Positions 769-24,210 of a stretch of DNA of 32,233 nt are shown piece after piece. Each line of letters starts with the position of its first letter. Within the stretch, counting starts at the first letter, position 1. This stretch comes from a bacterium. GTDB lineage: Bacteria > UBP14 > UBA6098 > JAFGQG01. The notes under the pieces are model-generated. The model did not search any database, had not been told where the DNA came from, and saw only the letters and a program-made list of their open reading frames with translations. Both the position numbers and the translations under genes were made by a program. Location of the stretch: positions 1 through 32,233 of the forward strand of contig JAFGGQ010000110.1 of NCBI GenBank assembly GCA_016930435.1. Direction: 5' to 3'.

Positions 769-2343
769 TCAATTTAAATAGATAACTTTCTTTTTTATAA
801 ATTGACTGGTAGTTTCAATTTTAATAAAATAAATGCCAGAACTCAATGTTTGGCTTGGAACCCAGGTATATTTCCAATTATTTCCTATGCTACAAGGATT
901 GTGTATTGGATTAATATGATCAACCATCCCGCCTTTGATATCATAAATTTCAATAACCGAGTTAAGTTGAGTTTCAATCCTACATGAGGAGTTAAATGGA
1001 TTCGGATAAACTGAAACATAAAATTTATCTGGTTTCTGTAACAACTCTTCAATATATTCTGGATTATATTCATCAGCTCCCATATCCCAAAAGTTATCTT
1101 GTGGTCTTAAGTCCCCTTCAAAATCTTCATCAGGTGCATAAAGCACAGTATCCCACAAAGATATATAAACCGATTCTGCACCTGCATTAGTACATGGTGA
1201 ACCTTCACTTAACCTGAGTGATGAATCAGAGAATATTGGATCTGAATTTATATTACCAGGACCATATATTATTGTACCGCCATATAACGGATCTGTTTTA
1301 CATTCATTCGAGTCAACATTTGTATAACACACATAGATACTACATGCATATACAAATATTTCATTTGCTTCACTTCCAGAATTTCCAAATATGATATTAT
1401 TAAATAATAGAAGATATCGATTTCGATTATCTGATATATGTAAACCCCCTCCATCAAACCGGGCTGAATTGTAACATATTGTATTGTTAACAATTTCAGG
1501 TTCAGAATGCTCACCTATTCTAACACCTCCTGCATCATAGTGAGCATAATTAACACTTATTAAATTATTAATAATTTTTGCATCTGACTCATATAAGCAT
1601 ATTGCTCCTCCATTAAGGTGAGCTTCATTACCTACTATTACATTATTTTTTATGTGATTATTTGAATATCCTACAAATATTCCACCTCCCTCACCAGTAA
1701 CATAATTATTTGTTATTGTGTTATTAGATACAATGGCTTCAGAATGGTCTTCAATTGAAATACCACCTCCATACTGCGCCCTATTATTACTTATATAATT
1801 TTGGAATATTCTTGAATTTGTTCCATATAAAATGATTCCTCCTCCATACCGACCTTTATTATTAATGATTTTGTTATAGCTAATCTCAATTAGATCTGTA
1901 TTCCTTGCGAAAATACCACCCCCTGTATTATCTCGATATTCCCCTATAGCATTACCATACTTGATCTTGCAGTACATAAGAGAACAACCGTCTGCAGCAG
2001 TATAAAACCTTATTCCATGATGCCCACCAGTTGAATCTGTCAAATGTGTATCGATTGCAGTAAAAACTATCGAGTCGGTTTCATTACCAATAGCTCTGAA
2101 TATTGCATTATTATCAACACAGAACTTATAGTGCCCCTGAAATATCACTGAACATCCGGGCATAATTCTTAAACAGCTGTCTGTCGGTACATGTAATTCA
2201 CCGGTAACTAAATATGGTGAAGCTTCGGGGTCCCAAACTCCCCAGACTTCACCCGATACTTCGGTTTGAGCTGACAAAGTATCAAATGTAAGTAAAAATG
2301 TTAAGAATAAAAATTCAATAATCATAATTTTGCAAATTTGCAT
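769..2343 (-). CDS. Secreted right-handed parallel beta-helix protein with T9SS-type sorting domain
   Basis: A predicted extracellular protein of about 524 residues. I chose the ATG at 2343 because AGAAGGGG lies about 8 bases upstream; a GTG at 2352 is in frame but has no better site. A signal peptide (MQICKIMIIEFLFLTFLLTF...LSAQ) is followed by about seven degenerate repeats of the form NNxIxxNxAxxGGGI, typical of the pectate-lyase-like/NosD beta-helix fold, between roughly residues 120 and 340. A linker with a DPLYGG...PxFSDSSLRLSEGSPC segment, common in polymorphic beta-helix proteins, precedes the final VYPNPFNSSCRIE...GIYFIKIE sorting domain. No catalytic residues can be assigned, so a role in adhesion or polysaccharide binding or cleavage is only inferred. 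The gene begins one base after the stop of the Asp-box gene upstream, which suggests translational coupling. Confidence 0.85.
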   Translation of the reverse strand: MQICKIMIIEFLFLTFLLTFDTLSAQTEVSGEVWGVWDPEASPYLVTGELHVPTDSCLRIMPGCSVIFQGHYKFCVDNNAIFRAIGNETDSIVFTAIDTHLTDSTGGHHGIRFYTAADGCSLMYCKIKYGNAIGEYRDNTGGGIFARNTDLIEISYNKIINNKGRYGGGIILYGTNSRIFQNYISNNRAQYGGGISIEDHSEAIVSNNTITNNYVTGEGGGIFVGYSNNHIKNNVIVGNEAHLNGGAICLYESDAKIINNLISVNYAHYDAGGVRIGEHSEPEIVNNTICYNSARFDGGGLHISDNRNRYLLLFNNIIFGNSGSEANEIFVYACSIYVCYTNVDSNECKTDPLYGGTIIYGPGNINSDPIFSDSSLRLSEGSPCTNAGAESVYISLWDTVLYAPDEDFEGDLRPQDNFWDMGADEYNPEYIEELLQKPDKFYVSVYPNPFNSSCRIETQLNSVIEIYDIKGGMVDHINPIHNPCSIGNNWKYTWVPSQTLSSGIYFIKIETTSQFIKKKVIYLN

Positions 2344-2344
2344 T

Positions 2345-2869
2345 TTATACACCCCTTCTTATTGTATTTGTTGTATAAATTTCTCCTGCTTCATTTCCAA
2401 TAGAAATATTCTTAGTGCTTCCTGTTGCACCACTTGCACCATGTGATTCCCAATTGACACCATAGTCTGTGCTATATTTTCCTCTTCCTTTATAAATTTC
2501 TCCTGGAATTCTTCCTGATGAAATATCTATGTATGCATCTCCACTCTGAAAGCTCCAGCTTTCTCCAAAGTCTGAGCTGTAATATAATCCCCAGCCAGTA
2601 GTACTTTGATAAACACCACCGACAGTAGAGTCTGCAGTTATATGTGCAAATTTAATGTAACCTGTCGTATCGACATCTTTCAAAACTAAAGTCGAGCCAT
2701 AATCAGCGGAATAGTATAAGAAATTACCAGGTAATGAGTCGGAGCTAATGTCGGGTCCAACAATATAGAGCCCTCCTGGTGTTGCGTCTTTGCAGATTAT
2801 GTCTTCTGAGTAACTCAACGAAAATAAAACCAATAGTAACGTTAAAACTATTAGTGTTTTGTTTTGCAT
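2345..2869 (-). CDS. Short secreted Asp-box (BNR) repeat protein, possibly truncated
   Basis: The start is the ATG at 2869, with GGAGG five bases upstream; the longer TTG reading has no ribosome site. A signal peptide (MQNKTLIVLTLLLVLFSLSYS) is followed by three Asp-box-like turns: YYSADYGSTL, YYSSDFGESW and YSTDYGVNW. These S-x-D-x-G-x-x-W motifs mark sialidase/sortilin-type beta-propellers. At 174 residues it is far too short for a full propeller. It stops at IYTTNTIRRGV without the sorting domain its neighbours carry, so the 3' part was probably lost. The beta-helix gene begins one base after its stop. Function unknown; a surface protein or its remnant. Confidence 0.7.
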   Translation of the reverse strand: MQNKTLIVLTLLLVLFSLSYSEDIICKDATPGGLYIVGPDISSDSLPGNFLYYSADYGSTLVLKDVDTTGYIKFAHITADSTVGGVYQSTTGWGLYYSSDFGESWSFQSGDAYIDISSGRIPGEIYKGRGKYSTDYGVNWESHGASGATGSTKNISIGNEAGEIYTTNTIRRGV

Positions 2870-2929
2870 GATGTCCTCCAATTATTTTTTCTGTTAATTC
2901 TATTTCTATTAATTTTGTTTTCTCCGTAT

Positions 2930-2967
2930 CTCCGTTTCGGAGTTTATCCTGAACTTTGCCGAAGGAT
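2930..2967. repeat. Pair of adjacent short palindromes (REP-like)
   Basis: The hairpin CTCCG-TTT-CGGAG (2930-2942) is followed three bases later by ATCCT...AGGAT arms at 2946-2967 enclosing TGAACTTTGCCGA. The second resembles the TCCTGA...TCGAAGGA palindromes scattered between genes in many bacterial genomes. The element sits in the leader of the Asp-box gene. The similarity is from memory; dispersal in this genome is untested. Confidence 0.4.
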
Positions 2968-3019
2968 GGTTTATATCCCATTTTATCTCAACTCCTCACC
3001 AAAATTTACTTTAATAGCA

Positions 3020-3112
3020 TCATTTTATACATTTCATTAATGGAGCAAAAGAGATTGAAAAGGAAATGAAAATCAATACGAAGAGGATTAAATAGATTTT
3101 TATACTATTCAT
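3020..3112 (-). CDS. Small signal-peptide-like ORF (30 aa), possibly a gene remnant
   Basis: This ORF starts at an ATG with a purine-rich AAAGGGGG just upstream and encodes a Lys-containing N-terminus followed by a long hydrophobic run (IYLILFVLIFISFSISFAP), then stops. It looks like a signal peptide detached from its mature protein. It lies downstream of a promoter-like TTGACT-16-TATTTT and about 150 bases upstream of the Asp-box gene, which has its own signal peptide. Either it is a real small membrane or leader peptide, or the 5' stub of a deleted secreted-protein gene. Low confidence because it is short and the region is AT-rich. Confidence 0.3.
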   Translation of the reverse strand: MNSIKIYLILFVLIFISFSISFAPLMKCIK

Positions 3113-3158
3113 GATCCCCCTTTGAAATGATTATTTTGAAAATAATTTACGCTAATAA

Positions 3159-3186
3159 AAAATAGTAGTCCTTAGCTTGAAGTCAA
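3159..3186 (-). promoter_or_regulatory. Putative sigma-70 promoter for the AT-rich secreted-protein cluster
   Basis: On the minus strand TTGACT (3186-3181) is separated by 16 bases from TATTTT (3164-3159). This would start transcription about 40 bases before the mini-ORF and lead into the Asp-box and beta-helix genes. The 16-base spacing matches the best promoter in the window. AT-rich DNA makes chance matches likely. Confidence 0.35.
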
Positions 3187-3319
3187 GAAAATAAAAAAAG
3201 TCAACTACTAATACTCTACCAGTAATTTACCTCTCTCAAGTCACTAATAATATAAGTAAAATCGATGGTATCTTAAATTGAATTGAAAGTTAAATTTTAC
3301 AAATATTCCTATGTTGAAA

Positions 3320-3334
3320 TGGTCACTGTGACCA
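3320..3334. promoter_or_regulatory. Palindromic operator-like site TGGTCAC-T-GTGACCA
   Basis: A perfect 7-base inverted repeat around a single central T, with one further half-site-like TGACCA at 3339-3346. This is the form of a dimeric regulator operator. It lies about 135 bases upstream of the minus-strand promoter-like site and about 290 bases upstream of the plus-strand one, too far for simple occlusion of either. No regulator gene is visible nearby. Confidence 0.35.
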
Positions 3335-3368
3335 ATTTATGACCAAAATTTCCTGATTATTATCAAAT

Positions 3369-3402
3369 CCATTGGGATGGATAGAACCATCAGAATCAAT
3401 GG
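3369..3402. repeat. Nested hairpin in the intergenic spacer
   Basis: The outer arms are CCATTG (3369-3374) and CAATGG (3397-3402). The inner arms are GATGG (3376-3380) and CCATC (3387-3391) around the loop ATAGAA. There is no T-tract on either side, so it is not an intrinsic terminator. It could be a structured RNA element or a mobile-repeat scar. Confidence 0.4.
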
Positions 3403-3490
3403 ACTCATCAGAAAAGCATTACCCTATGTAGGTTTGAAACCAACTTATTGTCTATAAAGGAAATACGAAAATTGTGCGGAATAGGATTTT

Positions 3491-3505
3491 TCCCGATAGT
3501 CGGGA
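3491..3505. repeat. Short perfect inverted repeat TCCCGA-TAG-TCGGGA
   Basis: Six paired bases around TAG, preceded by T's on the plus strand and followed by CTTTACC. It is GC-rich within very AT-rich DNA, so it stands out. It may be a dispersed palindromic element; copies elsewhere in the genome cannot be checked here. Confidence 0.45.
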
Positions 3506-3626
3506 CTTTACCGTCTGAGCCAGGGTGCCATCTTTGTTTTTTCAAAAATTTATCTCAACTTACTTTAAAGCACTCCGATGTCAAGAGATAATATCTGATT
3601 AATAGTAAAAAATAACTCGAAATTAC

Positions 3627-3654
3627 TGGACAAAATGTTTTAAAATATTACATT
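3627..3654 (+). promoter_or_regulatory. Putative sigma-70 promoter for the phosphatase–lysine transaminase operon
   Basis: TGGACA (3627-3632), a 16-base spacer, then TACATT (3649-3654). Transcription would begin close to 3661, inside the perfect hairpin TCCCCA-TTTA-TGGGGA (3659-3674) that lies just before the ribosome site, so the message may carry a stem-loop at its 5' end. The -10 box matches the consensus only moderately. Confidence 0.4.
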
Positions 3655-3690
3655 AGTTTCCCCATTTATGGGGACAAAAAAGGAGTGCCA

Positions 3691-4323
3691 ATGACCACCA
3701 GATTAATCCTGGTCAGACATGGTGAAACGGAATGGAACCGACAAGGAGTTTTCAGGGGAAGGACCGATCTCTCGCTGAATGAGAACGGTTTCCGGCAATG
3801 CCAGGCTTTAGCCTATGAACTGTCAACGGAAGGCATAAACGCGGTTTACTCCGGGCCCTTGAAACGTGCGCTTCAAACCGCAGAGCTGCTCGCAGAGCCA
3901 CACCACATACCTGTGCAGATTGAAGAGGGTTTACAGAACATAAACCTGGGTGAGTGGCAAGGTTTGCTTAAGACCGAGGCAGCAAAAAAATATCCCGATC
4001 AGTGGCAGAAATGGGTCGAAGACACCGAGCACTGGCAAGTTCAGGGCGCGGAAACCTTACAGGATATCCGTAACCGGGCAATCCCCGCAGTTCATAGAAT
4101 AACGAGAGAACATCCGGATCAGGTAATAGCCCTGGTTACACATCGCTCTGTCCTGAAGATAATAATTACCACCCTATTAGGTCTGGAGAAGGGTGGATTC
4201 TGGAAGGTTTACCTGGACAATGCCTCCTACTCCATCCTGGAGTACCAGGAAAAAAATGGATTCGTGTTGATCACCCTGAACAGAACATGCCATCTTAAGG
4301 AAAAGGTAACAGAGGTATTTTAA
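3691..4323 (+). CDS. Histidine phosphatase family protein (phosphoglycerate mutase-like)
   Basis: A 210-residue cytoplasmic phosphatase of the RHG superfamily. The ATG at 3691 has AAGGAG six bases upstream; the in-frame GTG at 3685 overlaps that site and is rejected. The LVRHGETEWN motif holds the phospho-accepting His10 and Arg9. Other expected active-site residues are Arg59 (SGPLKRALQTAE), Glu88 (NLGEWQG) and the second His151 (LVTHRSVLK). Family members include alpha-ribazole phosphatase, broad phosphatases and cofactor-dependent mutases. Nothing here selects one substrate, and there are no cobalamin genes nearby. It leads the operon with the lysine transaminase (43-base gap), so a role on a metabolite of that pathway is possible but inferred. 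Confidence 0.9.
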   Translation: MTTRLILVRHGETEWNRQGVFRGRTDLSLNENGFRQCQALAYELSTEGINAVYSGPLKRALQTAELLAEPHHIPVQIEEGLQNINLGEWQGLLKTEAAKKYPDQWQKWVEDTEHWQVQGAETLQDIRNRAIPAVHRITREHPDQVIALVTHRSVLKIIITTLLGLEKGGFWKVYLDNASYSILEYQEKNGFVLITLNRTCHLKEKVTEVF

Positions 4324-4366
4324 TAACTATAAGAATTATATAAAGATCAAGAGAAGGAGTAAATGA

Positions 4367-5698
4367 ATGAAAGACCCGGGTATCGAGCCTCAAAAGGTGC
4401 ATGAGACTCTAAACAGTTATATGTTGGCTGATGGTTTTGAACTGGTTGTGGACCTTAAAAAAAGTCAGGGGATGTATATTTTTGATTCCAGGCAGAAAAA
4501 GTGGTATCTGGACTTTTTTTCCTGTTTTGCTTCTCTTCCGATCGGATTCAATCATCCCAAAATGATGGTCCCCGAATTTTTGGAAAAGCTGGCTTATGTT
4601 TCTGTGAACAAGCCTTCAAACTCCGATATTTATACAAAGGAAATGGCTGATTTTGTGGCTACCTTTGCCCGGATCGCCAAACCACCGGAATTCAAACATC
4701 TTTTTTTTATATCCGGAGGCGCTCTGGCCGTTGAAAATGCATTGAAAACCGCTTTCGACTGGAAGATCCGAAAGAATATGGCCAGGGGTATGAAGGGTGA
4801 AGTTGGAACATCCGTGATACACTTTCAGGAGAGTTTCCATGGCCGAAGCGGATATACCTTGAGCCTGACCAATACTGCTGATCCCCGCAAAACCATGTAT
4901 TTCCCGAAATTTGATTGGCCACGCGTAGTAAATCCCAAGATTGCCTTTCCCCTTAATGAAGAAAATTTAAGACGGGTAGAGGAACTGGAGCAACAGAGCT
5001 TGAATCAGATAAAGGAGGCTCTCACCCGATATGGCGATGACATTGCAGCGATCATCATTGAGCCCATTCAGGCTGAGGGTGGTGATCATCATTTCCGGCC
5101 AGAATTTTTGCAATCTCTCCGCACAATTGCTGACGAGAGCGAACTTATGCTTATCTATGATGAGATCCAGACGGGCATGGGTCTCACCGGAACCTTATGG
5201 GCATACGAACAACTCAGTCCCCCTCCTGATATTCTGGCTTTCGGCAAAAAGAGCCAGATTTGCGGAATTATGGCAACAGACAGGGTAGATGAGATCGAGG
5301 ATAACGTGTTTAAAATTTCCTCCAGGTTGAATTCCACCTGGGGTGGAAACCTGATCGACATGGTCCGCTGCCAGAAATACCTGGAGATCATGGAGGAGGA
5401 AAATCTCATCGAGAATGCCCGGGCAATGGGAGAATATCTTTTTGAAAACCTGCTTGAGGTACAGCAGGAATTTCCCGGGTCGGTTTTCAACGCCAGGGGA
5501 CGCGGCTTAATGGTTGCATTTGATATGGCTGATGACCAAATCCGAACCAAGTTTCTGGATGAAATTTATACCCGTGAACTGATACTCATAAAATGCGGAT
5601 TTAACAGTATCCGCTTCCGCCCTTCCCTGACCGTAAAGAAAGAGGACATCGATAAAGCCTTTGTGATTATCCGGGAGGCTTTACGGGCGATCAGTTGA
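4367..5698 (+). CDS. lat: L-lysine 6-transaminase (lysine epsilon-aminotransferase)
   Basis: A PLP-dependent class-III aminotransferase of 443 residues that moves the epsilon-amino group of L-lysine to 2-oxoglutarate. This gives allysine, which cyclises to piperideine-6-carboxylate, and glutamate. Family-specific stretches typical of actinobacterial Lat are clear: NKPSNSDIYT (81-90), FISGGALAVENALKTAFDWK (about 114-133), FHGRSGYTLSLTNT (157-170), YDEIQTGMGLTGT with the PLP-binding Asp265, AFGKKSQICG with the Schiff-base Lys294, and SRLNSTWGGNL (319-329). A clean AAGGAG lies seven bases before the ATG. The enzyme is known from lysine catabolism and from beta-lactam and osmolyte precursors. No aminoadipate-semialdehyde dehydrogenase, lysine cyclodeaminase-type gene or ectoine gene is in view, so the fate of the product is open. 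It is followed at 25 bases by a cupin. Confidence 0.95.
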   Translation: MKDPGIEPQKVHETLNSYMLADGFELVVDLKKSQGMYIFDSRQKKWYLDFFSCFASLPIGFNHPKMMVPEFLEKLAYVSVNKPSNSDIYTKEMADFVATFARIAKPPEFKHLFFISGGALAVENALKTAFDWKIRKNMARGMKGEVGTSVIHFQESFHGRSGYTLSLTNTADPRKTMYFPKFDWPRVVNPKIAFPLNEENLRRVEELEQQSLNQIKEALTRYGDDIAAIIIEPIQAEGGDHHFRPEFLQSLRTIADESELMLIYDEIQTGMGLTGTLWAYEQLSPPPDILAFGKKSQICGIMATDRVDEIEDNVFKISSRLNSTWGGNLIDMVRCQKYLEIMEEENLIENARAMGEYLFENLLEVQQEFPGSVFNARGRGLMVAFDMADDQIRTKFLDEIYTRELILIKCGFNSIRFRPSLTVKKEDIDKAFVIIREALRAIS

Positions 5699-5723
5699 TC
5701 ACCAAACAACCTTGTGAGGCGAG

Positions 5724-6071
5724 ATGAAAATAGCTCATTACAGCGCAGTGCCCTTAGAAGAAGTCGTTTCTGAAGATACCCGCGGGGTAAATGTCCGCTG
5801 GCTGATCTCGGAAAAGGATGAAGCCCCTAATTTTGCTATGCGCAGGTTCGTTGTGGAACAAGGAGGCAATACCCCTTTTCATGACCATCCATGGGAACAT
5901 GAAGTCTATATATTAGGAGGTTCCGGCAGCCTGATATTTGAAGGGAAAAAATACAAATTGCTGCCCGGGGTTTTTGCTTATATACCCCCGAACACAAAAC
6001 ACCAGTTCATTAATAGTGGAGAAGAAAGCCTGGAATTCCTATGCCTGGTTCCCCATCAGAAGCAAAGCTAA
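5724..6071 (+). CDS. Small single-domain cupin protein
   Basis: A 115-residue cupin-2 family protein. Cupin motif 1 is PFHDHPWEHEVYIL (His53, His55, His59/Glu60) and motif 2 is PGVFAYIPPNTKHQFIN (His93), a complete metal site. Single-domain cupins of this size act as small isomerases, dioxygenase-like enzymes or metabolite binders; the substrate cannot be read from sequence. It lies 25 bases after lat with GAGGCGAG as a plausible ribosome site, so it is probably co-transcribed and may act on a lysine-derived metabolite (inference). It converges with the minus-strand cluster that ends at 6187. Confidence 0.9.
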   Translation: MKIAHYSAVPLEEVVSEDTRGVNVRWLISEKDEAPNFAMRRFVVEQGGNTPFHDHPWEHEVYILGGSGSLIFEGKKYKLLPGVFAYIPPNTKHQFINSGEESLEFLCLVPHQKQS

Positions 6072-6186
6072 ATGAAAGAAGCCGACCTTCCCGAACGATT
6101 TAGGAGTAAACCCCGGAGTATATTCAGTTGGAGGTTGGGATGGCAAATCAGGTTTATTTTGACCTGTTCAAGAAGTTGAATACCAA

Positions 6187-6861
6187 CTATATTGAAGGCT
6201 TCAACGGGGGAGGGGTTTGATCCCCTTTGGTTATCTGAACAACTGTTTTCCCGCCTAATATATCCTGGGCTGTAACCCCAGCAGAAATGATCAGTCTTAT
6301 AGCATCCTCAATGCTGATATCCAGGGTACACACCTCATCTTCAGGGAACATCAGCATATAGCCCGAAGTGGGATTAGGAGTAGTAGGGACATATACCATC
6401 ACTGCTTTGCGGCCATCGGGAAGCAAAAGATCGGGCCGGGAGGTAATAAAACCAATGCTGTAAGCATGGGCATGAGGAAACATCACAAGGACTGGGGTTT
6501 TAAAGATCACCTTCTGTTGGGTAATAATCACATCTGAAACCTTCTGGACTGCATTATATATAGTCCGGAGAACGGGGAAGATATTGAATATTTTCTGGGC
6601 GAAATTGATAGCTTTCTTGCCTAAATAATTGCGGGTAAAAAGTCCGATCAGGAACATAACTATCAAGAATGTAATGATCCCTAAACCCGGCACTCTCGAG
6701 CCATTGGGAAAGGTTATCCATCGAGCCAGGAGATTACCCAGAAAGATATCGAGTTTCCCGAACACAAACCAGAACACCAGTAAAGAAACAAGTGCAGGCG
6801 CGGAGACCAGTATCCCGGTTACCAGGTACCCGCTAATCTTTTTGCCCAGCTTCTCCTTCAT
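6187..6861 (-). CDS. DUF502 family membrane protein
   Basis: A 224-residue integral membrane protein. I prefer the ATG at 6861, which has GGGAG just upstream; a longer start at 6891 lies deeper inside divIC. Two hydrophobic segments (GYLVTGILVSAPALVSLLVFW and GLGIITFLIVMFLIGLF) flank a short loop. They are followed by the family's soluble part with IFPVLRTIYNAVQ, VMVYVPTTPNPTSGYMLMFP and ISAGV. DUF502 proteins are widespread and functionally unassigned; the plant homologues are COV1-like. The gene overlaps the 3' end of divIC by 29 bases, so the two are translationally linked. Confidence 0.85.
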   Translation of the reverse strand: MKEKLGKKISGYLVTGILVSAPALVSLLVFWFVFGKLDIFLGNLLARWITFPNGSRVPGLGIITFLIVMFLIGLFTRNYLGKKAINFAQKIFNIFPVLRTIYNAVQKVSDVIITQQKVIFKTPVLVMFPHAHAYSIGFITSRPDLLLPDGRKAVMVYVPTTPNPTSGYMLMFPEDEVCTLDISIEDAIRLIISAGVTAQDILGGKTVVQITKGDQTPPPLKPSI

Positions 6862-7195
6862 TTTTCTCCCTGAACCGGTAAATTTTTTCATTATCTTTAG
6901 CTAATCCGTATTTTTCCCGTGCCAGCCTTTCAATATAAGTTGTATCATTCTCTAAGCGCTCAAGTTCTTTCTGTAGGGACTCCCCCTCAGCCGCCGCGTT
7001 CTCTAATTCTTCTTCTAAAGACTTTCTCAGGTTACGATAGCGGGTTACCGCAATCAAACCATTATCTCCCATCAGGATCATATAAGCAACCACGATACAA
7101 AGGAGTATCAATAAAAATTTTTTGACCCTTTTCTTAACCTCGTTACGTTTTAGGGGGTTACCCCTCAGGAACTTGAGGTGCTCTGTGTTTTCCAT
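6833..7195 (-). CDS. divIC: Septum formation initiator, DivIC/FtsB family
   Basis: A 120-residue single-pass division protein. Residues 1-24 are basic and cytoplasmic, about 25-43 form a transmembrane helix (KFLLILLCIVVAYMILMG), and about 50-85 form a coiled coil rich in Glu and Leu (LRKSLEEELENAAAEGESLQ). The family-typical ERLAREKYGLAKDNEKIYRF segment follows. FtsB/DivIC is known to join FtsL and FtsQ in the septal complex that activates cell-wall synthesis. It follows the enolase fusion by 26 bases. That is the gene order seen in many bacteria, where eno precedes ftsB/divIC. Confidence 0.92.
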   Translation of the reverse strand: MENTEHLKFLRGNPLKRNEVKKRVKKFLLILLCIVVAYMILMGDNGLIAVTRYRNLRKSLEEELENAAAEGESLQKELERLENDTTYIERLAREKYGLAKDNEKIYRFREKNEGEAGQKD

Positions 7196-7221
7196 AAGAC
7201 CATATCCCTTTTAAATAAAGG

Positions 7222-10050
7222 TCATTTTAATTTATAAACGGGCAGTTGTTCCCTGATCAATTCATAGAGGGGGACTTCCTGCCGGACTTCATCAATAATC
7301 TGTAATCCGAGGCTAAGCTGTTCAAAATTGAGTTTATCCTTCAGCACCTTTGCAAACTGGACATTATCTGAGCCTGCAGTTTCTTTAATATCATTAACTA
7401 TTTTTTGAACCAAGTCAATAATTTTCTGTTCTTCCTCAGCAGATAATTTCACTTCGTTCATTGGAATGTCCCTTCCGCACTGGTTTTCCAACTCAATGAG
7501 TTTCTCGAATCGAGTTTTTTCTTTCTGGTGTGTTGCCAGTTTTTCACTTAGGCGGTCTAAAAGTTTTGAACCGCCGTTAAAAGCGAAAACTCTGGACATG
7601 GCCTCGGTCATTTGCTCCTGCATTACCTCGCAAAGTTCCTGCCCGTGAAGGGCTCCTTTCAATCGGGCCAGGGCCAGGGACATAGAAAGTACAGCGTTCA
7701 TTCCCAGGTTGATCTTTCTTTGCATCACTTTGATATTGTCATTTTGAGTAGCATCCGGTGCGATAGTTCCCCGTTGCCTTGCCAGGTCGCACTCTATTTG
7801 CAGCATTGTCCGGTCCAGCTCCATTATTTCACCCAATTCACTGACCTTTTTTCCCAGGAAGAGTGGGGATAGGATTTTACCAACATTGTCCACAGCGTTA
7901 AGGCATCCCTTGCCATTATAGCGTTTAGCCCGGTGCCAGAGTTCCGAAAGTTCCTTATCCTTCATGGATGCAATCATATCATCGGTCACTTCCTTTTTAA
8001 ACCGGTAGGTCTTGTCGGTAACCTGCAGCTTAAAGAGTTCCGGGAATTTTTTAACGATGGGCTCTCCGGCGGGGATAATGCTGTCGATGAGGTGAATAGC
8101 CTCGTCGGTACCCGCCGAGGTACCCAATGGAGTCGCCCCTTCAAAGGTAAGCAATCTTTCATAAAACGGATCGTTAGGGATACCCACTTTCAAATCGACT
8201 GCCACGGTAGGGATGCCGGCATTAGTAGATGCTTCACGTGCCACAATGCTGGTTATCGTCAATCTTTCAATGAAATTTTTGCCTAAATTTTGGATTTCAT
8301 GATCAGAGGGTTTTTCATTATCCTTACGGGCCTGCTTACGCAGTGCTTCCTGTATAACCTTGACCACTGATTCGTACTTATAAAGGCGCTCGGAATTTGC
8401 CCCCCCGCCAGCTTTAAGCCCCAATGAATTTATTGCAAGGGCTACCTGAGCCTCAAAATCCTCAATGGGGGATTTTGACCGGTGGGACACTACAGTTTCA
8501 AGCTTCTTGCCTATTGCGGTTAAAAGAGCAAGAACTCCCTCTGTTACCGAACCGATCTGATTCAACTTGATCAGCGCTGTATTGATCAATCCCTTTTCAG
8601 CCTTTTCCTCTATGGATGAATCCTTGGTGGTGATGTTATCATCTCCAATAACATGGATCTTATCACCCATGCTTTTCATTATCAACCACCAGCCTTCATC
8701 GTCATCCTCGGCAAAACCGTCCTCGATAGAAACGATTGGTAGATCATCCTCTTCAATAGCCTTATGGTAGATTTCCAATAGCTGGTCACGTGACAGTACC
8801 GTTTTATCACTGTCCCGCCAGGCCATATAGATCCCGATTCCTTCTTCACCTGTAAGCCCTTTTTCTTCCCGGTAGGCAGTTTCAGCTTCGGATGCTGCGG
8901 GGTCCAGGGCCATTGCCACATCCTTGCCGGGTATATACCCACAGTCAAGAATGGCCTGTTTCTGCATCCTCCAAAGTCTTTGCACCGGAAGAATATCACC
9001 GGGTTCTTTCCGGATAAATGGAGCCAAACCACCCTCTGTTCCCACTCCTTTTACGATACAACCTTCGGAGTTCTCGATAATCTCCTTCAGACGGGTTTGC
9101 AGATTAACGGTCATCTCCTGGGCGTCTTCATAATTCCTGGCGCTGAGTGGGATAAACATACTCTCCTGCAGGCTGATATTACTTTCGGGGAATTCCTTTT
9201 CAGTATGGCGCCCACCCATTCCACAATTCCGGAACTCCCAGGGCACCCACTTTTCATTACCATCGGAGAGAATGACCTTCTTCATGCGGGTATAGATCAT
9301 CAGTTTTTTCACCTTTTCTACCCGGTCAACCCATTTAAAAGACCCTGCCTTACGGTCTAAACCGGCTTTTTCAGATGCTTTTTTAGCTTTTGATTCCCGT
9401 TCCCGGAATTCCCTGTATTTACCGGGATCCGCCATGAGAAAATCAAGCAGGCCCACAATCCCAATACCCAGGCAGAGCCTTCCAAGATAAACCATCACAG
9501 CTGCTTTACTGATGAGTCCGACTATCAGCAGGACAATGGCTAATGGCAGGAAAACAGACGAAAGATTCCGGCTGGCGCGTGGGCCTGCTGCTGCAACAGC
9601 AAGGTTATAGGGCGCATCAGGATGGTAATCCAGACGGTTTTTTTTAACCCCGGGAAAAGCCCCGTAAGGGATGGTAATAAACATCCGAACATACCAGAAA
9701 AACTTTTTCAAAAAACCGCTCTCAATCCTGGATTGGGCATCATCCAATAACAAGCTGCACAAGGCGTTCAGTTTCACTGCTTTAAGGTAATGCCCCATCT
9801 CGTGAATGGCGATACCGGTATGAAAGGTAATATAAAGGAAAAGCAACGAAATAATGGTCTCGGGACTGGCGAACATGAACCGAAGCACATCACCCCGATT
9901 ACTTACCTGGTTGGCGATGGATAATACCGAAGATATAAAGGCCACGTGAAAAGAAACCAGAATATGATTCGCAATAACCCACCCGGTATCCAGTGCCGCA
10001 TTACCGGGCTTTGACAACCGCCCCTTTAATTTGAAAACCAGTTTAAACAT
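7222..10050 (-). CDS. Membrane M50-like peptidase domain fused to a circularly permuted enolase
   Basis: A 942-residue fusion with GAGGT before its ATG. Residues about 25-215 form a membrane domain with an HEMGH site (His83, Glu84, His87), AAAGPRASRN (153-162) and GLLDFLMADPG (200-210, Asp203), in the order of M50 site-2 proteases. A basic linker leads to an enolase TIM barrel (about 255-570). Its residues correspond to the canonical set: His282, Glu296 (QESMFIP), Glu339 (TEGG), Mg ligands Asp383 (ALDPAASE), Glu443 (SIEDGF) and Asp470 (GDDNITTK), Lys495 (ALIKLNQIG), Arg524-Ser525 (SHRS) and Lys546. The enolase N-terminal cap comes after the barrel (about 596-805): IVAREASTNAGIPTVAVDL, PLGTSAGTDEA (Ser645 as second-Mg loop Ser), GKGCLNAVDNVGKILSPL, LGMNAVLSMSLALARLK. 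A helical tail of about 137 residues follows. It plausibly interconverts 2-phosphoglycerate and PEP at the membrane. Peptidase activity is uncertain. Confidence 0.9.
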   Translation of the reverse strand: MFKLVFKLKGRLSKPGNAALDTGWVIANHILVSFHVAFISSVLSIANQVSNRGDVLRFMFASPETIISLLFLYITFHTGIAIHEMGHYLKAVKLNALCSLLLDDAQSRIESGFLKKFFWYVRMFITIPYGAFPGVKKNRLDYHPDAPYNLAVAAAGPRASRNLSSVFLPLAIVLLIVGLISKAAVMVYLGRLCLGIGIVGLLDFLMADPGKYREFRERESKAKKASEKAGLDRKAGSFKWVDRVEKVKKLMIYTRMKKVILSDGNEKWVPWEFRNCGMGGRHTEKEFPESNISLQESMFIPLSARNYEDAQEMTVNLQTRLKEIIENSEGCIVKGVGTEGGLAPFIRKEPGDILPVQRLWRMQKQAILDCGYIPGKDVAMALDPAASEAETAYREEKGLTGEEGIGIYMAWRDSDKTVLSRDQLLEIYHKAIEEDDLPIVSIEDGFAEDDDEGWWLIMKSMGDKIHVIGDDNITTKDSSIEEKAEKGLINTALIKLNQIGSVTEGVLALLTAIGKKLETVVSHRSKSPIEDFEAQVALAINSLGLKAGGGANSERLYKYESVVKVIQEALRKQARKDNEKPSDHEIQNLGKNFIERLTITSIVAREASTNAGIPTVAVDLKVGIPNDPFYERLLTFEGATPLGTSAGTDEAIHLIDSIIPAGEPIVKKFPELFKLQVTDKTYRFKKEVTDDMIASMKDKELSELWHRAKRYNGKGCLNAVDNVGKILSPLFLGKKVSELGEIMELDRTMLQIECDLARQRGTIAPDATQNDNIKVMQRKINLGMNAVLSMSLALARLKGALHGQELCEVMQEQMTEAMSRVFAFNGGSKLLDRLSEKLATHQKEKTRFEKLIELENQCGRDIPMNEVKLSAEEEQKIIDLVQKIVNDIKETAGSDNVQFAKVLKDKLNFEQLSLGLQIIDEVRQEVPLYELIREQLPVYKLK

Positions 10051-10132
10051 TTAATTACCTCACGGGTTATATTATTTAAATACCTTATACTTTACAATCA
10101 AAAAAACAGCATTTTCTTGGAATTTAAGCTGC

Positions 10133-12322
10133 CTACAAAAGATCTGACCTTTTTCGGAGGATCCATTCGGTAGCTAAACACACAATAAACAGGATCAGGA
10201 ACAGTGGATGATCCCACATGTTCTTTTCCATTTTGACTCTGATGCTTTTTTCAGAAATCCTGATGGAATCAGATAATCCTTTTAGTCGAGAGGGTTCAAA
10301 ATAACGACCATTGGTGCGCTCCGCAAGCCTTAACAGGGTATTTTTGTCCATTCTAACGTTCTGAAATTCCAGGCTATATTCTTCTACAATGAAAATCCGG
10401 GTGCTCTTTGAAAATGGATTATCCCTGATAAATGCCTCTCCACTGAGCTGGTATTTTCCGGGAGGCAATGAGGGAATCCGGTGTTCGTATATCCCTTTTT
10501 CATATTCATCGAGGAGAATATCCAGTGGTTTAAACGCTATGGAATCGGCCTCTGATATGCGGGTTAATTTTACCTTGACAGTAGCTCCGCTAACAGCCTG
10601 GTTGTTATCATTGCGTAAAAAGCTTGTAATGTTTATCCGTTCTCCATTTTTATAAACATTCTTATCGGTCTTGAGCACAAAGGGTTCCATCTCATCTTTA
10701 ACCAGCAGCCACTGGATCAGGTTATTCATCAGTTGCTCATAAACCTGCACATCCTTCCCGAATCCTGCGGGTACAAATCCCCAGCGCCAAATGGGAAAAG
10801 CGGTAATGGAGAATATTTTTCCTGCCTTATAATTGCCGGCAACAAAAAGAGCCACTTCCCGCAATTTAGGATGGACCAGCAAGTCCTTGGCTCCTTCATC
10901 AAGTGGCCCTATCATCAGGAACCCTTCGAGTGGAGGCAATTCTAAAAATGACTGCTCCAGCGGTAAATTATCGCTGCTTTCAATATTGGTAATGGAATGA
11001 TAAAGACCCTCAATACTCAGCACGGCATTGAAATTATCCAGAGTAACCTTGTTCGTACCCTTACTCAAATGAAAGGGCAAGATATTATCCCAGTAAGGTT
11101 CCTGAGCAGAACTGAGATTGAGGTTCTCCTGAATGAAATACAGGATCGAACCGCCTTTTTCAACATAATTCTGAAATAGTTCCCCGTAATTCTTCCGGGC
11201 AAGGTCACTGATAACATTGAATAATATTATACATTCATAGCGGGATAGTTCTTCCGGTTCCGAAGGGAATACTGGCAATTGTCCTAAAATGCGGGTTTTT
11301 CCAATATTATATTCTTCAAACTCAATATTTTCATTATCAGCGATAACCCTCTTGAAAAAGGAATATTCCCAATCAAGAGCCTTGGTGACAAGGAGAATTT
11401 TACGTTTGGTTTCAAGTATCTTAACGGAGAAATATTTGCTGTTATTTTTTCGTGAAAATTCACCATCCTGGAATGGGACCGTGACCAGAAAATTCTGTAG
11501 TCCCGGCTGGTTGGACTGCACATCGAATTTTACTTCATTGAGCTCCCCTACTTCGCTGAGTTCCACCTGTTGCTTGGCAATAGTCTCCTGATTCAGGGAG
11601 ATGGTCACGTTCACCCTTTGTCCTGCCATACCCCAGCTTTCCAGATAGACCCTCACCGGGAAGGATTGTTCCTGGTAAGCAATATCGTTTGCCACCACCC
11701 TCTTTATGCCTACATCACGGGGTGCCTCCGGGTCACCTATTCCAACCGTGTAAATCGGATATTTAAGGTCTTCGGTAACTTGCAGGGGGGTAATCCCTAA
11801 ATTCGATTGTCCATCGGACAGTATCAACAGGGCTCCAATCTCCTCAGGTGTATAAACACTATTGAGGTTAAGAATGATTTCCCCCAGAGCGGTAGCATTG
11901 CGTTCGAAAGTAAGCTCTTCGAGAGGTACTAATGTATCTCCAAAAGCATAATAATCAATGGGATATTTCCCTTCCAGAGCATTTAATTCCTCTCCTTTCA
12001 GGATTTGTTCAACAGTTTCAGCTCTTTTGCCGGTATTATCCTCAATGGTCATGCTGCGGGAGTCATCAACTACAACCATGAGATGTGGCTTGATGATCTC
12101 CTTTTTAGTGCCAATAAAGAGGGGTTCGAAGATGGATAGAAAGAGGAAGAAAAAGGCGGCGATTCTCAACGCTATCAGCAGTTTCTTGCGTCCCCTGCCA
12201 AGTGGGGGATTGGTTATCCGGTAAGAAAGCACAGCCATTACCAGGGCGATCAAAAAGCACCCGATAACCAGGCCAATAAATTTTGCCTGCAGGGCTATGT
12301 CAACTGTTTCGCAACTGAACAT
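10133..12322 (-). CDS. Membrane-anchored VWA-domain protein
   Basis: A 729-residue envelope protein. Two N-terminal helices (about 13-33 and 48-70) precede a von Willebrand factor A domain with a MIDAS-like DDSRS (86-90) and LILSDGQSN (167-174). After Ig-like sheets comes a Rossmann-like segment (about 305-530, beginning RKILLVTKALDWEYSFFKRV). This resembles the amidotransferase-like fold seen in large FCB-group membrane VWA proteins, although no catalytic Cys is evident. A further beta-rich domain and a C-terminal helix (LFLILFIVCLATEWIL) end at RKRSD. The bulk therefore lies in the periplasm between two membrane anchors. Its ATG overlaps the stop of the ABC exporter by one base (TAATG), so the pair is coupled. 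Role unknown; related proteins occur with BatA/B-type or MoxR systems, absent here. Confidence 0.85.
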   Translation of the reverse strand: MFSCETVDIALQAKFIGLVIGCFLIALVMAVLSYRITNPPLGRGRKKLLIALRIAAFFFLFLSIFEPLFIGTKKEIIKPHLMVVVDDSRSMTIEDNTGKRAETVEQILKGEELNALEGKYPIDYYAFGDTLVPLEELTFERNATALGEIILNLNSVYTPEEIGALLILSDGQSNLGITPLQVTEDLKYPIYTVGIGDPEAPRDVGIKRVVANDIAYQEQSFPVRVYLESWGMAGQRVNVTISLNQETIAKQQVELSEVGELNEVKFDVQSNQPGLQNFLVTVPFQDGEFSRKNNSKYFSVKILETKRKILLVTKALDWEYSFFKRVIADNENIEFEEYNIGKTRILGQLPVFPSEPEELSRYECIILFNVISDLARKNYGELFQNYVEKGGSILYFIQENLNLSSAQEPYWDNILPFHLSKGTNKVTLDNFNAVLSIEGLYHSITNIESSDNLPLEQSFLELPPLEGFLMIGPLDEGAKDLLVHPKLREVALFVAGNYKAGKIFSITAFPIWRWGFVPAGFGKDVQVYEQLMNNLIQWLLVKDEMEPFVLKTDKNVYKNGERINITSFLRNDNNQAVSGATVKVKLTRISEADSIAFKPLDILLDEYEKGIYEHRIPSLPPGKYQLSGEAFIRDNPFSKSTRIFIVEEYSLEFQNVRMDKNTLLRLAERTNGRYFEPSRLKGLSDSIRISEKSIRVKMEKNMWDHPLFLILFIVCLATEWILRKRSDLL

Positions 12323-14478
12323 TATTTTACCGTTGCTTCCGGTGAGAAAAATTGGTCTTTGTACTGGAGTTGATATAGGTTGAAGTATAGGCCCTTTTGG
12401 GTCAGGAGTTCCTGATGGGTACCCGCTTCCCTGATCCGGCCCTTATGAATAACTATAATTTTATCGGCCTTCTGAATTGTAGAGAGCCGGTGCGCTATGA
12501 TTATGGAGGTTCGGCCTTCCATAAGGTGTTCAAGGGCTTCCTGGATCAATTGCTCGGTTTCCGTATCGATACTGGAAGTGGCTTCATCGAGCACCAGTAT
12601 CCGGGGGTCATAGGCAAGGGCACGGGCAAAAGCCAGAAGCTGCCGCTGCCCCATGGAAAGAGTAGCACCTCCCTCTTTAATCTCCTCCTGATACCCGTCC
12701 GGCAATTTATCGATAAAGGTATTGGCATTAACCAAACGCGCTACCTGCTCTAACTCATCAGGAGTGAAACCCTCGTTGTTCAAACGAATATTATGCTCGA
12801 TCGTAGTTGCAAATAGAAAGACATCCTGAAGCACTACCCCGATATGAGAGCGGAGCGAGAATTTATCCAGGTCCTTTATATCGTAGCCATCGACAAGTAT
12901 CCTTCCCTTTTGCACCTCGTAGAAACGGCTGAGAAGGTTGATAATGGTGGACTTACCGGCACCGGTAGCTCCCACGAAGGCTATTTTCTGGCCAGGTTTT
13001 ATCTTAAATGATACGTCCTTCAAAACATAATCTTCGCTTTCGTATGCAAACCACACACCCTGAAACTCGATATCACCCCTGATATTATCCAGGCGGATTG
13101 CTGATTCCGAATTCTTTATTTCGATATCCTGATCCAGAAACTGGAAGACCCTCTCCGCTGATGCCATTGAAGACTGCATGATATTATACTTCTCGCTGAT
13201 ATCCCGGATAGGGCGAAAGAACATTTCAATAAAGGCCAGGAAGGCTACCAGTGAGCCCAGCGACATAATATTCTGGACTACTTTCCCGCCTCCGTACCAT
13301 ACGATCACGGCGATGCCAAGCGCGCTCAAAATCTGGATTATCGGGGAAAATACCGCCTGAATAAACAATTGGCGAAGATTTGCCTGATAATGCTCCTCGT
13401 TGATCACTTTGAAAAAATTGAGATTTTTTGCTTCCCGAACGAAAATTTTGATTATCCTTATCCCATTAATATATTCTGCCAGAGTAGCATTGATACGGGC
13501 AATCTTAATCCGGACCACGCGAAAAGCATCCCGGACACGAATCTTGAAATAGAGGGTCACTGCTACGATCAAAGGGACAATGGCAAAACAGACCAGGGCT
13601 AACTGCCAGTTCATTACCAGCATAATCACAATAATGCCTATCAGGAGAAAAACATCCTTGAACAGGTTTATCAGAACCGAAGTGAACATTTCATTGAGAA
13701 CCTCGATATCATTGGTGGTCCTGGTAACCAGACGGCCAATAGGATTCCGGCTAAAATATGAAAGGGAAAGCTGCTGAGCGTGTTTAAATAAATTTACGCG
13801 AATATCGAACATGATCTTCTGGCCAGTATAAGTGGTCAGGTAAACATGCAGAAAACCAAGTATGAAATTAAGCAGAAGTACCCCCAGGTAAACAAAACCG
13901 ACCTTAACCACACCTTTGAGGTCCTTATTTCTGATAAGCAGAAGCTCAGTCCGGGGTATCTGCTGGAGATTATCATAAGAAACCGCATAAAGGCCCGGGC
14001 CATAGCGGAATAATTCCGGGTATTTGCCAACCGCATTTTCCAGCTTAGCGGATTGTTCTCTTGACATACCATCTGTTTCTATGATATAATATTTTTCGGT
14101 GCTTAGAATTCCCTCATCCTCTAATTTCCGGGAATCCTGAATCTCCAGTTTACCCGCATCTACGTAGTACTCCGGACCGTTAAGTATATAAATAAACTCG
14201 CTGTATTTTGAAATTATCTCCTTTTCTTGGGAACTATCTTCTCCAAACTGAAGCTTTCGGTTGTTAAAGATAATATAATTATCAATTCCTATTTTGGAAA
14301 GGTAGGGGAGAAATATATCCGCGCCGGAGGTGAGCAGTAGTACGACTATCGCTGCAAGGATGAGTTTTTTATATGGGGTGGCAAATTTAAGCAAGCGTTT
14401 CATTATCCGGGCGTCGTAAACCTTGCCCAAAGACTCCTCATCGTGGATACTCTTGCTGCCGGGCCCTTGATGTCTCAT
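12322..14478 (-). CDS. ABC exporter, fused permease–ATPase, with an extra extracytoplasmic insertion
   Basis: A 718-residue half-transporter of the MsbA/MDR type, expected to work as a dimer. Helix 1 is at about 38-60. The loop before helix 2 (about 192-212), normally short, is expanded by roughly 115 residues (about 72-190, including YYVDAGKLEIQDSRK and YYIIETDGMSREQ) on the extracytoplasmic side. Four more helices follow up to about 420. The nucleotide-binding domain has Walker A GATGAGKST (503-511), the Q-loop at Gln551, signature LSMGQ (607-611; Met replaces the usual Gly), Walker B ILVLDE (627-632) and H-loop His663. Substrate unknown: lipid, LPS-like or peptide export are all possible. 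It is the first gene of the minus-strand group ending at 6187. Confidence 0.93.
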   Translation of the reverse strand: MRHQGPGSKSIHDEESLGKVYDARIMKRLLKFATPYKKLILAAIVVLLLTSGADIFLPYLSKIGIDNYIIFNNRKLQFGEDSSQEKEIISKYSEFIYILNGPEYYVDAGKLEIQDSRKLEDEGILSTEKYYIIETDGMSREQSAKLENAVGKYPELFRYGPGLYAVSYDNLQQIPRTELLLIRNKDLKGVVKVGFVYLGVLLLNFILGFLHVYLTTYTGQKIMFDIRVNLFKHAQQLSLSYFSRNPIGRLVTRTTNDIEVLNEMFTSVLINLFKDVFLLIGIIVIMLVMNWQLALVCFAIVPLIVAVTLYFKIRVRDAFRVVRIKIARINATLAEYINGIRIIKIFVREAKNLNFFKVINEEHYQANLRQLFIQAVFSPIIQILSALGIAVIVWYGGGKVVQNIMSLGSLVAFLAFIEMFFRPIRDISEKYNIMQSSMASAERVFQFLDQDIEIKNSESAIRLDNIRGDIEFQGVWFAYESEDYVLKDVSFKIKPGQKIAFVGATGAGKSTIINLLSRFYEVQKGRILVDGYDIKDLDKFSLRSHIGVVLQDVFLFATTIEHNIRLNNEGFTPDELEQVARLVNANTFIDKLPDGYQEEIKEGGATLSMGQRQLLAFARALAYDPRILVLDEATSSIDTETEQLIQEALEHLMEGRTSIIIAHRLSTIQKADKIIVIHKGRIREAGTHQELLTQKGLYFNLYQLQYKDQFFSPEATVK

Positions 14479-22630: not shown

Positions 22631-24199
22631 CTATTTAAGTCCAAACTCATTTTCCGAAAACTTTACTACCGTATAAACATAAAGTTCCGTATCCGGGTTC
22701 TTATATGCATCTGGTGACAGACCGGCTTTCTGGCTGCACAGCTGTCGGAGGAACTGGTCCCGGTCCCAGCCGGTTTCGGTAGCAACCTGGGGCAAAAAAG
22801 TCCCTGAACTATTTCCCTTTCTGACCAGTACTCCATGTTTACCCATCTCTATCCGGCTATAATCACTTACCTTTTGCAACGGGGAGAGTACCGAGATCTC
22901 AATTTCGATATTCTCCAGCTCATCTTCGATCACCGGCCGGAAGCGGGGATCCCTTGTAGCGGCAGAGATAGCCCGGCTGATAACCGATTGGTAAAGAGGT
23001 TGTGTAGCTACCATCTCACCGATACAGCCCCGCAGGTCTCCATTTTCCTTCAAGGTGACAAAAACCGCGCCATCCTCGACCAATTTCGGGTTGTCCGGCA
23101 CCGGCTCATCCAGAATCCGCCCTTCCCGAACAAAACCATCAATACTGCGGCGTGCTAAACCCAGCAGATAAACCTTCTCCTCTTCGGTCAGGCTGTATTC
23201 AGACTCGGACTCTATACTGTCCGACTTCTGATTACCGGCGTCATCAATCTGGGCAAAGGCAACCGCGCAATAACCTACTACGCGCGCTTTTTCTCCGATA
23301 GGGACATCACCAGAGTTGGCATATTTTAAAAGAACAGCTCTTGAATTTGGCTTTGCCTGGGCTAAATTCATCAGGGTTATTACCCCACCAATCCCACAAT
23401 ACTCTACTCTCCCACTCCTTATCCCACTTATCAAAGCCTCGGTATCAAGAGCAGTGGTATATCCAATCGCCCTTCTGTCCATTTCCACCGCTACATCGTA
23501 GGGATGGTAATGGGACATATCTGAGCTTGCAATATAAATAAGTTTATACTCTTTGTCAAGCTTTTTCAGGGCATTAGTAAGGATATCGACGTGTTCAGAG
23601 CTCTGGCTTCCAAATAAAATGGGCACTATCTTTATGTTATTACCCAATATATACTGTAAAAAGGGGATCTCCGCTTCCAGAGAATGTTCCGGAATGTGAG
23701 GTTCCCTGTCAAATTTAAAAACCGGGTCAAAATCAAGCAGCTTTTGGGCTACCTCCTCGTCCACCCTGACAACTCCCAGGGGGGTTCGGAATCCACCTTC
23801 CGCCCAAACCGCTATGGAGTTACTGGCTACCCTGTGGCAGGCCCCGATCAAAACATAGGTATATTCACGGTATTTTTCTACATCACGTGCCAGCAGTTTA
23901 AAGCCATGGGCGGCCACTCCGCCGGAATATACAAATCCGGCATGAGGGGAAACTAAACCCCATAAATCGCCCTCTAAAGGTATATCCTCTGTCTCCATGA
24001 AAACGCTGTCCAGAAATGCCTTTAACGCCTCACTATCTGCGGGATACCACATGCCGGACACGGCTGGTTTTCGAATATTATCCATAGATAACCCCTCCTC
24101 GCTTTCTTTATCCGATCCTCCCTTGGTATTCCCCTTCTCGCTGCACCCCCAAAGAAGAAAGATCACCAGGATCAATGATGTTATTCTTTTAAAGTCCAT
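22631..24199 (-). CDS. MEMO1–AMMECR1 fusion (AmmeMemoRadiSam proteins B and A) with lipoprotein signal
   Basis: About 522 residues from the ATG at 24199, which has AGGATG six bases upstream; longer starts overlap the previous gene. Residues 1-19 form a lipoprotein signal (MDFKRITSLILVIFLLWGC). A MEMO1 domain follows (about 40-320) with SPHAGFVYSGGVAAHGF, GACHRV, EHSLEAEIPFLQ, SSDMSHY and EYCGIGG. These carry the three His and the Cys that line the MEMO active-site-like pocket related to extradiol dioxygenases. An AMMECR1 domain occupies the C-terminal third (FVTLKENGDLRGCIGEM, ISAATRDPRFRPV, FLPQVATETGWDRDQFL). The usual third partner, a radical SAM enzyme, is not in the window. Membrane anchoring is unusual, as family members are generally cytoplasmic. 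The gene sits in the operon of the polytopic synthase-like protein and the TonB receptor. Confidence 0.92.
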   Translation of the reverse strand: MDFKRITSLILVIFLLWGCSEKGNTKGGSDKESEEGLSMDNIRKPAVSGMWYPADSEALKAFLDSVFMETEDIPLEGDLWGLVSPHAGFVYSGGVAAHGFKLLARDVEKYREYTYVLIGACHRVASNSIAVWAEGGFRTPLGVVRVDEEVAQKLLDFDPVFKFDREPHIPEHSLEAEIPFLQYILGNNIKIVPILFGSQSSEHVDILTNALKKLDKEYKLIYIASSDMSHYHPYDVAVEMDRRAIGYTTALDTEALISGIRSGRVEYCGIGGVITLMNLAQAKPNSRAVLLKYANSGDVPIGEKARVVGYCAVAFAQIDDAGNQKSDSIESESEYSLTEEEKVYLLGLARRSIDGFVREGRILDEPVPDNPKLVEDGAVFVTLKENGDLRGCIGEMVATQPLYQSVISRAISAATRDPRFRPVIEDELENIEIEISVLSPLQKVSDYSRIEMGKHGVLVRKGNSSGTFLPQVATETGWDRDQFLRQLCSQKAGLSPDAYKNPDTELYVYTVVKFSENEFGLK

Positions 24200-24210
24200 A
24201 ATCATCCTAT

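What the first reader, a model, noticed from the sequence alone, without database searches (positions are those of the whole stretch)
7636..9288. A circularly permuted enolase: barrel first, capping domain second
In every enolase I know, the alpha/beta cap (REILDSRGNPTVE, SGASTG, GANAILGVSLA) precedes the TIM barrel. Here the barrel (residues about 255-570) comes first, and the cap (about 596-805: IVAREASTNAGIPTVAVDL, PLGTSAGTDEA, LGMNAVLSMSLALA) follows through a charged linker. The catalytic set is intact. Barrel residues correspond to E. coli His159, Glu168, Glu209, Asp246, Glu290, Asp317, Lys342, Arg371, Ser372 and Lys393. Spacings from the Glu290 equivalent onward are identical: 27 to the Asp ligand, 25 to the Lys, 29 to the Arg, 22 to the last Lys. 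The cap keeps the Mg-binding loop Ser (Ser645). Domain swap with retained chemistry points to a genuine permutant.
Basis: partly seen in the sequence, partly recalled or inferred. Interest (0 to 1): 0.95.

Follow-up and report, generated by a model that had tools for sequence, protein, structure and literature searches.

The report
Membrane-anchored, circularly permuted enolase
This bacterium carries, besides its ordinary enolase, a second enolase whose two halves are encoded in swapped order and joined to a membrane domain, with every known catalytic residue kept; the same architecture occurs in at least seven genomes from three distant bacterial groups, so it is a real protein family and, as far as I could find, an undescribed one.

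Summary
ORF 7222-10050(-), 942 aa, matches the enolase barrel (PF00113, residues 272-574, E 3e-47) and then the enolase N-domain (PF03952, residues 694-808, E 2e-11), in reversed order. All enolase metal, acid/base and substrate residues are in place (H282, E296, E339, D383, E443, D470, K495, R524, S525, K546 and loop S645). Predicted folds agree: residues 265-559 superpose on enolase chain residues 142-415 (Z 30), and the separately folded cap on residues 1-137 (Z 12.9). The break is therefore exactly at the cap/barrel junction. It is not an assembly join: the same order occurs in independent assemblies from three groups, and all seven form one branch apart from 34 canonical enolases (support 100/98). 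It also missed that in two relatives the chain continues into a dikinase-like ATP-grasp/phosphohistidine module, and that a third has a dikinase-like gene next door. The host has an ordinary enolase as well. Best reading: an accessory, membrane-tethered, catalytically competent permuted enolase. Activity and cellular role are inferred, not shown.

The parts
7222..10050 (-). Whole ORF, 942 aa plus stop: membrane domain, enolase barrel, enolase cap, helical tail; GAGG ribosome-binding-like site at 10058-10061
9367..9993 (-). M50-like membrane domain, residues 20-228, several predicted transmembrane helices
   Evidence: Pfam M50 E 0.006, below gathering cut-off; 6 of 7 members match M50, best E 3e-4; hydropathy
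9790..9804 (-). HEMGH (residues 83-87), HExxH zinc-protease-like motif; kept in 6 of 7 members, lost in G203
8341..9270 (-). Enolase TIM barrel, residues 261-570, with H282, Q295, E296, E339, D383, E443, D470, K495, H523, R524, S525, K546
   Evidence: PF00113 E 3.4e-47; superposes on enolase chain residues 142-415, Z 30.2, rmsd 2.2 over 265
8266..8340 (-). Linker joining old C-terminus to old N-terminus, residues 571-595; the least conserved stretch (16-50% identity)
7609..8265 (-). Enolase cap (N-domain), residues 596-814: AREASTNAGIPTV, PLGTSAG (S645), RYNGKG, NLGMNAVL
   Evidence: PF03952 E 1.8e-11; superposes on enolase chain residues 1-137, Z 12.9, rmsd 2.1 over 115
   Evidence: absent from canonical enolases and from G203
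7225..7608 (-). C-terminal helical extension, residues 815-942, ending VPLYELIREQLPVYKLK
   Evidence: helices at pLDDT 80-96; 35-41% identity among close relatives
6833..7195 (-). Next gene: FtsB/DivIC-like septum protein; neighbour of permuted or ordinary eno in L028 and L029 too
   Evidence: PF04977 E 6e-18

Best explanation
The gene encodes an accessory enolase that is a natural circular permutant. Compared with ordinary enolase the chain is cut in the loop between cap and barrel, the old C-terminus is linked by about 25 variable residues to the old N-terminus, and the new N-terminus is attached to a polytopic M50-like membrane domain. Barrel and cap are predicted to fold back into one ordinary enolase active site (two Mg ions on D383/E443/D470, base K495, acid E339, loop S645, phosphate/carboxylate contacts R524, S525, K546, H282) that interconverts 2-phosphoglycerate and phosphoenolpyruvate at the inner membrane, beside the soluble housekeeping enolase. 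Shown: domain order, residue identity, conservation, single branch in the tree, fold of both halves. Inferred: one closed active site, enolase activity, membrane location, and that the membrane domain serves to place PEP production locally.
For: Profiles in reversed order over their cut-offs. All catalytic positions identical in window, L028, L029 and the very divergent G203 member at only about 30% barrel identity to E. coli. AF2 pTM 0.71 with barrel, cap and tail at pLDDT mostly 75-95. Same architecture in L028, L029, G011, G222 and G387, and with the membrane domain as a separate gene in G203. Synonymous change saturated while dN is 0.12-0.14 in the barrel and 0.27-0.29 in the cap: purifying selection. 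One branch, support 100/98. Ordinary enolase also in G000, G001, G011, G222 and G203.
Against: No activity data. The NCBIfam equivalog for enolase scores 203 against a cut-off of 300. The universal GETED after SHRS is replaced by KSP(I/N)xD, and DSRG by TNAG, so substrate or regulation could differ. Cap/barrel closure could not be measured because no coordinates were available; the argument rests on pTM. The AF2 alignments included canonical cap and barrel pieces, so the folds are partly steered by the proposed homology. The membrane domain is predicted at low confidence (pLDDT under 50).
Confidence: 0.75

Rival explanations
1. A permuted enolase-fold protein that has moved to another reaction: same enolate chemistry on a different 2-phospho-acid or related substrate, working with the dikinase-like module seen in relatives (ATP-grasp plus phosphohistidine).
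For: Loss of the GETED and DSRG motifs, a long cap insert, long branch to canonical enolases, coexistence with an ordinary enolase, fusion or adjacency to a PPDK-like module lacking the PEP barrel.
Against: All substrate-contact residues specific to enolase (H159, S372, K393, R371 equivalents) are kept, also in G203; no dikinase-like partner found next to the gene in the Cloacimonadota group, only the ordinary PPDK.
Confidence: 0.17
2. A catalytically dead or weak enolase domain used as a PEP/2-PG sensor that controls the M50-like membrane protease (or the reverse).
For: HExxH and a second acidic motif kept in 6 of 7 members; fusion to a membrane domain.
Against: Full catalytic set kept, which a pure sensor would not need; the G203 member has lost HExxH yet keeps the enolase residues.
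Confidence: 0.07
3. Assembly artefact or fusion of two broken enolase pieces.
For: The two named relatives (L028, L029) are metagenome-assembled genomes, and the others are draft assemblies in many contigs.
Against: Seven genomes, at least three independent assemblies with the same junction, uninterrupted frames, strong constraint on both sides of the junction; sequence far from the host's own enolase (31% identity in the barrel).
Confidence: 0.01

Closest known systems
Enolase (phosphopyruvate hydratase, EC 4.2.1.11; PF03952 + PF00113)
   Same: Barrel and cap fold, two-metal site, all acid/base and substrate residues
   Different: Domain order reversed, membrane domain at the N-terminus, cap insert, helical tail, GETED and DSRG motifs changed, about 30% identity
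Peptidase family M50 (site-2 protease type)
   Same: HExxH, AAAGP-type motif, several transmembrane helices; 6 of 7 members give weak M50 matches
   Different: Below Pfam's cut-off; no PDB relative by profile; HExxH lost in G203
Pyruvate phosphate dikinase, ATP-grasp and phosphohistidine domains (relatives only)
   Same: G387 C-terminal part matches PPDK 13-342 at E 1e-53, up to residue 521 in one chain; TSH phosphohistidine motif kept
   Different: No PEP/pyruvate-binding barrel found; fused behind a permuted enolase; not present in the window protein

Membership tests
Enolase (EC 4.2.1.11) | C-terminal TIM barrel of enolase (PF00113) | tested here: met
   161.6 bits against cut-off 21.5; Z 30
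Enolase (EC 4.2.1.11) | Enolase N-domain/cap (PF03952) | tested here: met
   44.7 bits against cut-off 35; Z 12.9 to chain residues 1-137
Enolase (EC 4.2.1.11) | Cap precedes barrel in the chain | tested here: not met
   Barrel 261-570 precedes cap 596-814
Enolase (EC 4.2.1.11) | Catalytic and ligand residues | tested here: met
   All E. coli positions identical
Enolase (EC 4.2.1.11) | NCBIfam equivalog TIGR01060 cut-off | tested here: not met
   203.4 bits against 300
Enolase (EC 4.2.1.11) | 2-PG to PEP activity | not testable with these tools
   needs an assay
Peptidase M50 | HExxH in a transmembrane segment | tested here: met
   HEMGH 83-87 at the end of a hydrophobic segment, kept in 6 of 7
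Peptidase M50 | Pfam PF02163 gathering score | tested here: not met
   16.6 bits against 27.2
Peptidase M50 | Proteolytic activity | not testable with these tools
   needs an assay

The most novel reading that the evidence does not exclude
A distinct, rare membrane-bound system in which a permuted enolase is physically coupled to a dikinase-like ATP-grasp/phosphohistidine module (fused in G222 and G387, possibly adjacent in G203) and a membrane M50-like domain, passing PEP or a phosphoryl group to an unknown acceptor at the membrane.
Probability: 0.25. Interest if true: 0.88.

Novelty: new variant of a known kind. Interest (0 to 1): 0.75.

Why it matters
Enolase is among the most conserved enzymes of central metabolism, and its cap-then-barrel order is normally taken as fixed. 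I know of no natural circular permutant of it, and none turned up in the open-access full text searched (subscription journals not held). A natural permutant with the active site kept would show directly that folding and catalysis of this fold do not need the universal chain order. Its ties to a membrane domain and, in other groups, to a dikinase-like module point to localised PEP chemistry that can be tested.

Tried and rejected
Assembly artefact: rejected, see conservation. Recent tandem duplication of the host's enolase: rejected, since the permuted proteins branch apart from all 34 canonical enolases including those of the same class, although in L028 an ordinary eno lies directly downstream. 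Viral origin: a viral-contig scan with the family alignment found no relative; the best plasmid matches cover only the barrel and are ordinary enolases, none covers 80% of the query. Anti-phage system: no credible PADLOC match. PPDK partner in the window's group: only the ordinary 881 aa PPDK, none in the window. G039's 1125 aa dikinase-like protein: no enolase-like gene recognised next to it. G349 weak hit: an RND-type transporter by eye, chance. A profile search of the membrane domain against PDB sequences gave nothing. A profile comparison of A5 with A1 was uninformative, as they share sequences. Two Pfam scans failed on wrong coordinates, so the G387 domain statement rests on the PDB comparison; G011's cap beyond residue 663 is seen only as a separate contig piece.

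Full report
What is there. The window's minus strand carries one uninterrupted frame, 7222-10050, of 942 codons, preceded by a GAGG motif. Pfam finds the enolase barrel at residues 272-574 (E 3.4e-47) and then the enolase N-domain at 694-808 with a second stretch (E 1.8e-11), both above their curated cut-offs and in reversed order. PDB sequence comparison matches the barrel to residues about 136-420 of solved enolases, with weak local matches of the cap further downstream in the query.

Residues 1-230 are a membrane domain with an HEMGH motif, remotely like peptidase family M50: E 0.006, below Pfam's cut-off; six of seven family members match M50 weakly, best E 3e-4. After the cap comes a family-specific helical extension to residue 942. 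The genome also holds an ordinary enolase on another contig.

It is real and old. Two independent public assemblies, L028 (942 aa, 64% identity) and L029 (a Candidatus Cloacimonadota bacterium, 913 aa, 67-68%), have the same architecture. G011, in the same class, has the first 635 residues at about 50% identity at a contig end, including the start of the cap, and a further cap piece on another contig. In a sample of 386 genomes the membrane domain or the permuted junction was seen only in these, in G222 and its relative G387, and in G203, which share only the domain with the window's genome. A search with G203's own junction and cap found no further member in 290 genomes. In G222 and G387 the frame continues for about 1200 residues, ending in PPDK-like ATP-grasp and phosphohistidine domains without a PEP barrel. 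In G203 three neighbouring genes encode a weakly PPDK-like protein, the membrane domain without HExxH, and the permuted enolase.

Residue test. Placing each permuted protein's cap before its barrel and aligning with E. coli enolase and the ordinary enolases of the window's genome and of L028 shows identity at H159, Q167, E168, E209, D246, E290, D291, D317, K342, H370, R371, S372, K393 and the loop Ser42 in window, L028, L029 and G203. Barrel identity to E. coli is about 30%, cap identity 32-36% (27% in both for G203). The GETED motif after SHRS and the DSRG motif of the cap are replaced by family-specific sequences. Between window, L028 and L029 synonymous change is saturated while dN is 0.12-0.14 in the barrel and 0.27-0.29 in the cap; the linker 571-595 is the least conserved part.

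Tree. Seven permuted and 34 canonical enolases separate on one branch with support 100/98; G203's branch is very long, so its exact place is unsure. One origin of the permutation is not ruled out and is the simplest reading. The permuted proteins are not close to the ordinary enolases of their own class, so a recent duplication is excluded.

Fold. AF2 on the 942 aa protein, with family members and canonical cap and barrel pieces as separate rows, gave pLDDT 74 and pTM 0.71; the first 160 residues are poorly predicted. Residues 265-559 superpose on enolase chain residues 142-415 (Z 30.2, rmsd 2.2 over 265). The cap folded alone superposes, residues 7-223 of 351, on enolase residues 1-137 (Z 12.9, rmsd 2.1 over 115). 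The two ranges meet at the cap/barrel junction, as a circular permutation requires. A pTM of 0.71 with a quarter of the chain unplaced implies that barrel and cap are confidently packed; this is inference, as no coordinates or PAE were available. The canonical rows in the alignments steer the folds towards enolase to some degree.

Mechanism. Shown: order, residues, conservation, fold of both halves. Inferred: one closed active site, 2-PG/PEP chemistry, membrane tethering with the enolase domain on one side of the inner membrane, and an accessory role beside the soluble enolase. The neighbouring FtsB-like gene (and FtsW-like in L029) may only reflect the eno-ftsB neighbourhood that I recall from many bacteria. 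L028 shows permuted gene, ordinary eno, ftsB in a row, so synteny alone is no evidence for a cell-wall role. No ordinary enolase was found in G387 or in L029's 1.4 Mb genome, which may be incompleteness.

Known or new. No paper on a natural circularly permuted enolase was found in the open-access full text searched. It works like an enolase by every residue I could test, but it fails the family's usual chain order and the NCBIfam cut-off. I file it as a permuted variant of the enolase family, not as an ordinary member.

Noticed in passing
L039 (G222:C85) 4964-11239 and L048 (G387:C36) 6559-12801: About 2080-2092 aa proteins: M50-like domain, permuted enolase, long helical-looking region, PPDK-like ATP-grasp and phosphohistidine domain without the PEP barrel.
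   Followed up: partly
L040 (G203:C81) 1899-7131: Three adjacent genes: weakly PPDK-like protein, M50-like membrane protein without HExxH, and a divergent permuted enolase.
   Followed up: partly
L028 4601-9300: Permuted enolase, ordinary enolase and FtsB-like gene in a row; in the window the permuted gene sits directly before ftsB and the ordinary enolase is on another contig.
   Followed up: partly
window 22631-24220 (-): One ORF joins a Memo-like domain and an AMMECR1 domain.
   Followed up: no
window 24211-26379 (-): 722 aa protein in which only residues 255-413 match spermidine synthase; the rest is unassigned.
   Followed up: no
G387 and G402 (genome of L029): No ordinary enolase found beside the permuted one; may be incompleteness, but would be notable if true.
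   Followed up: no
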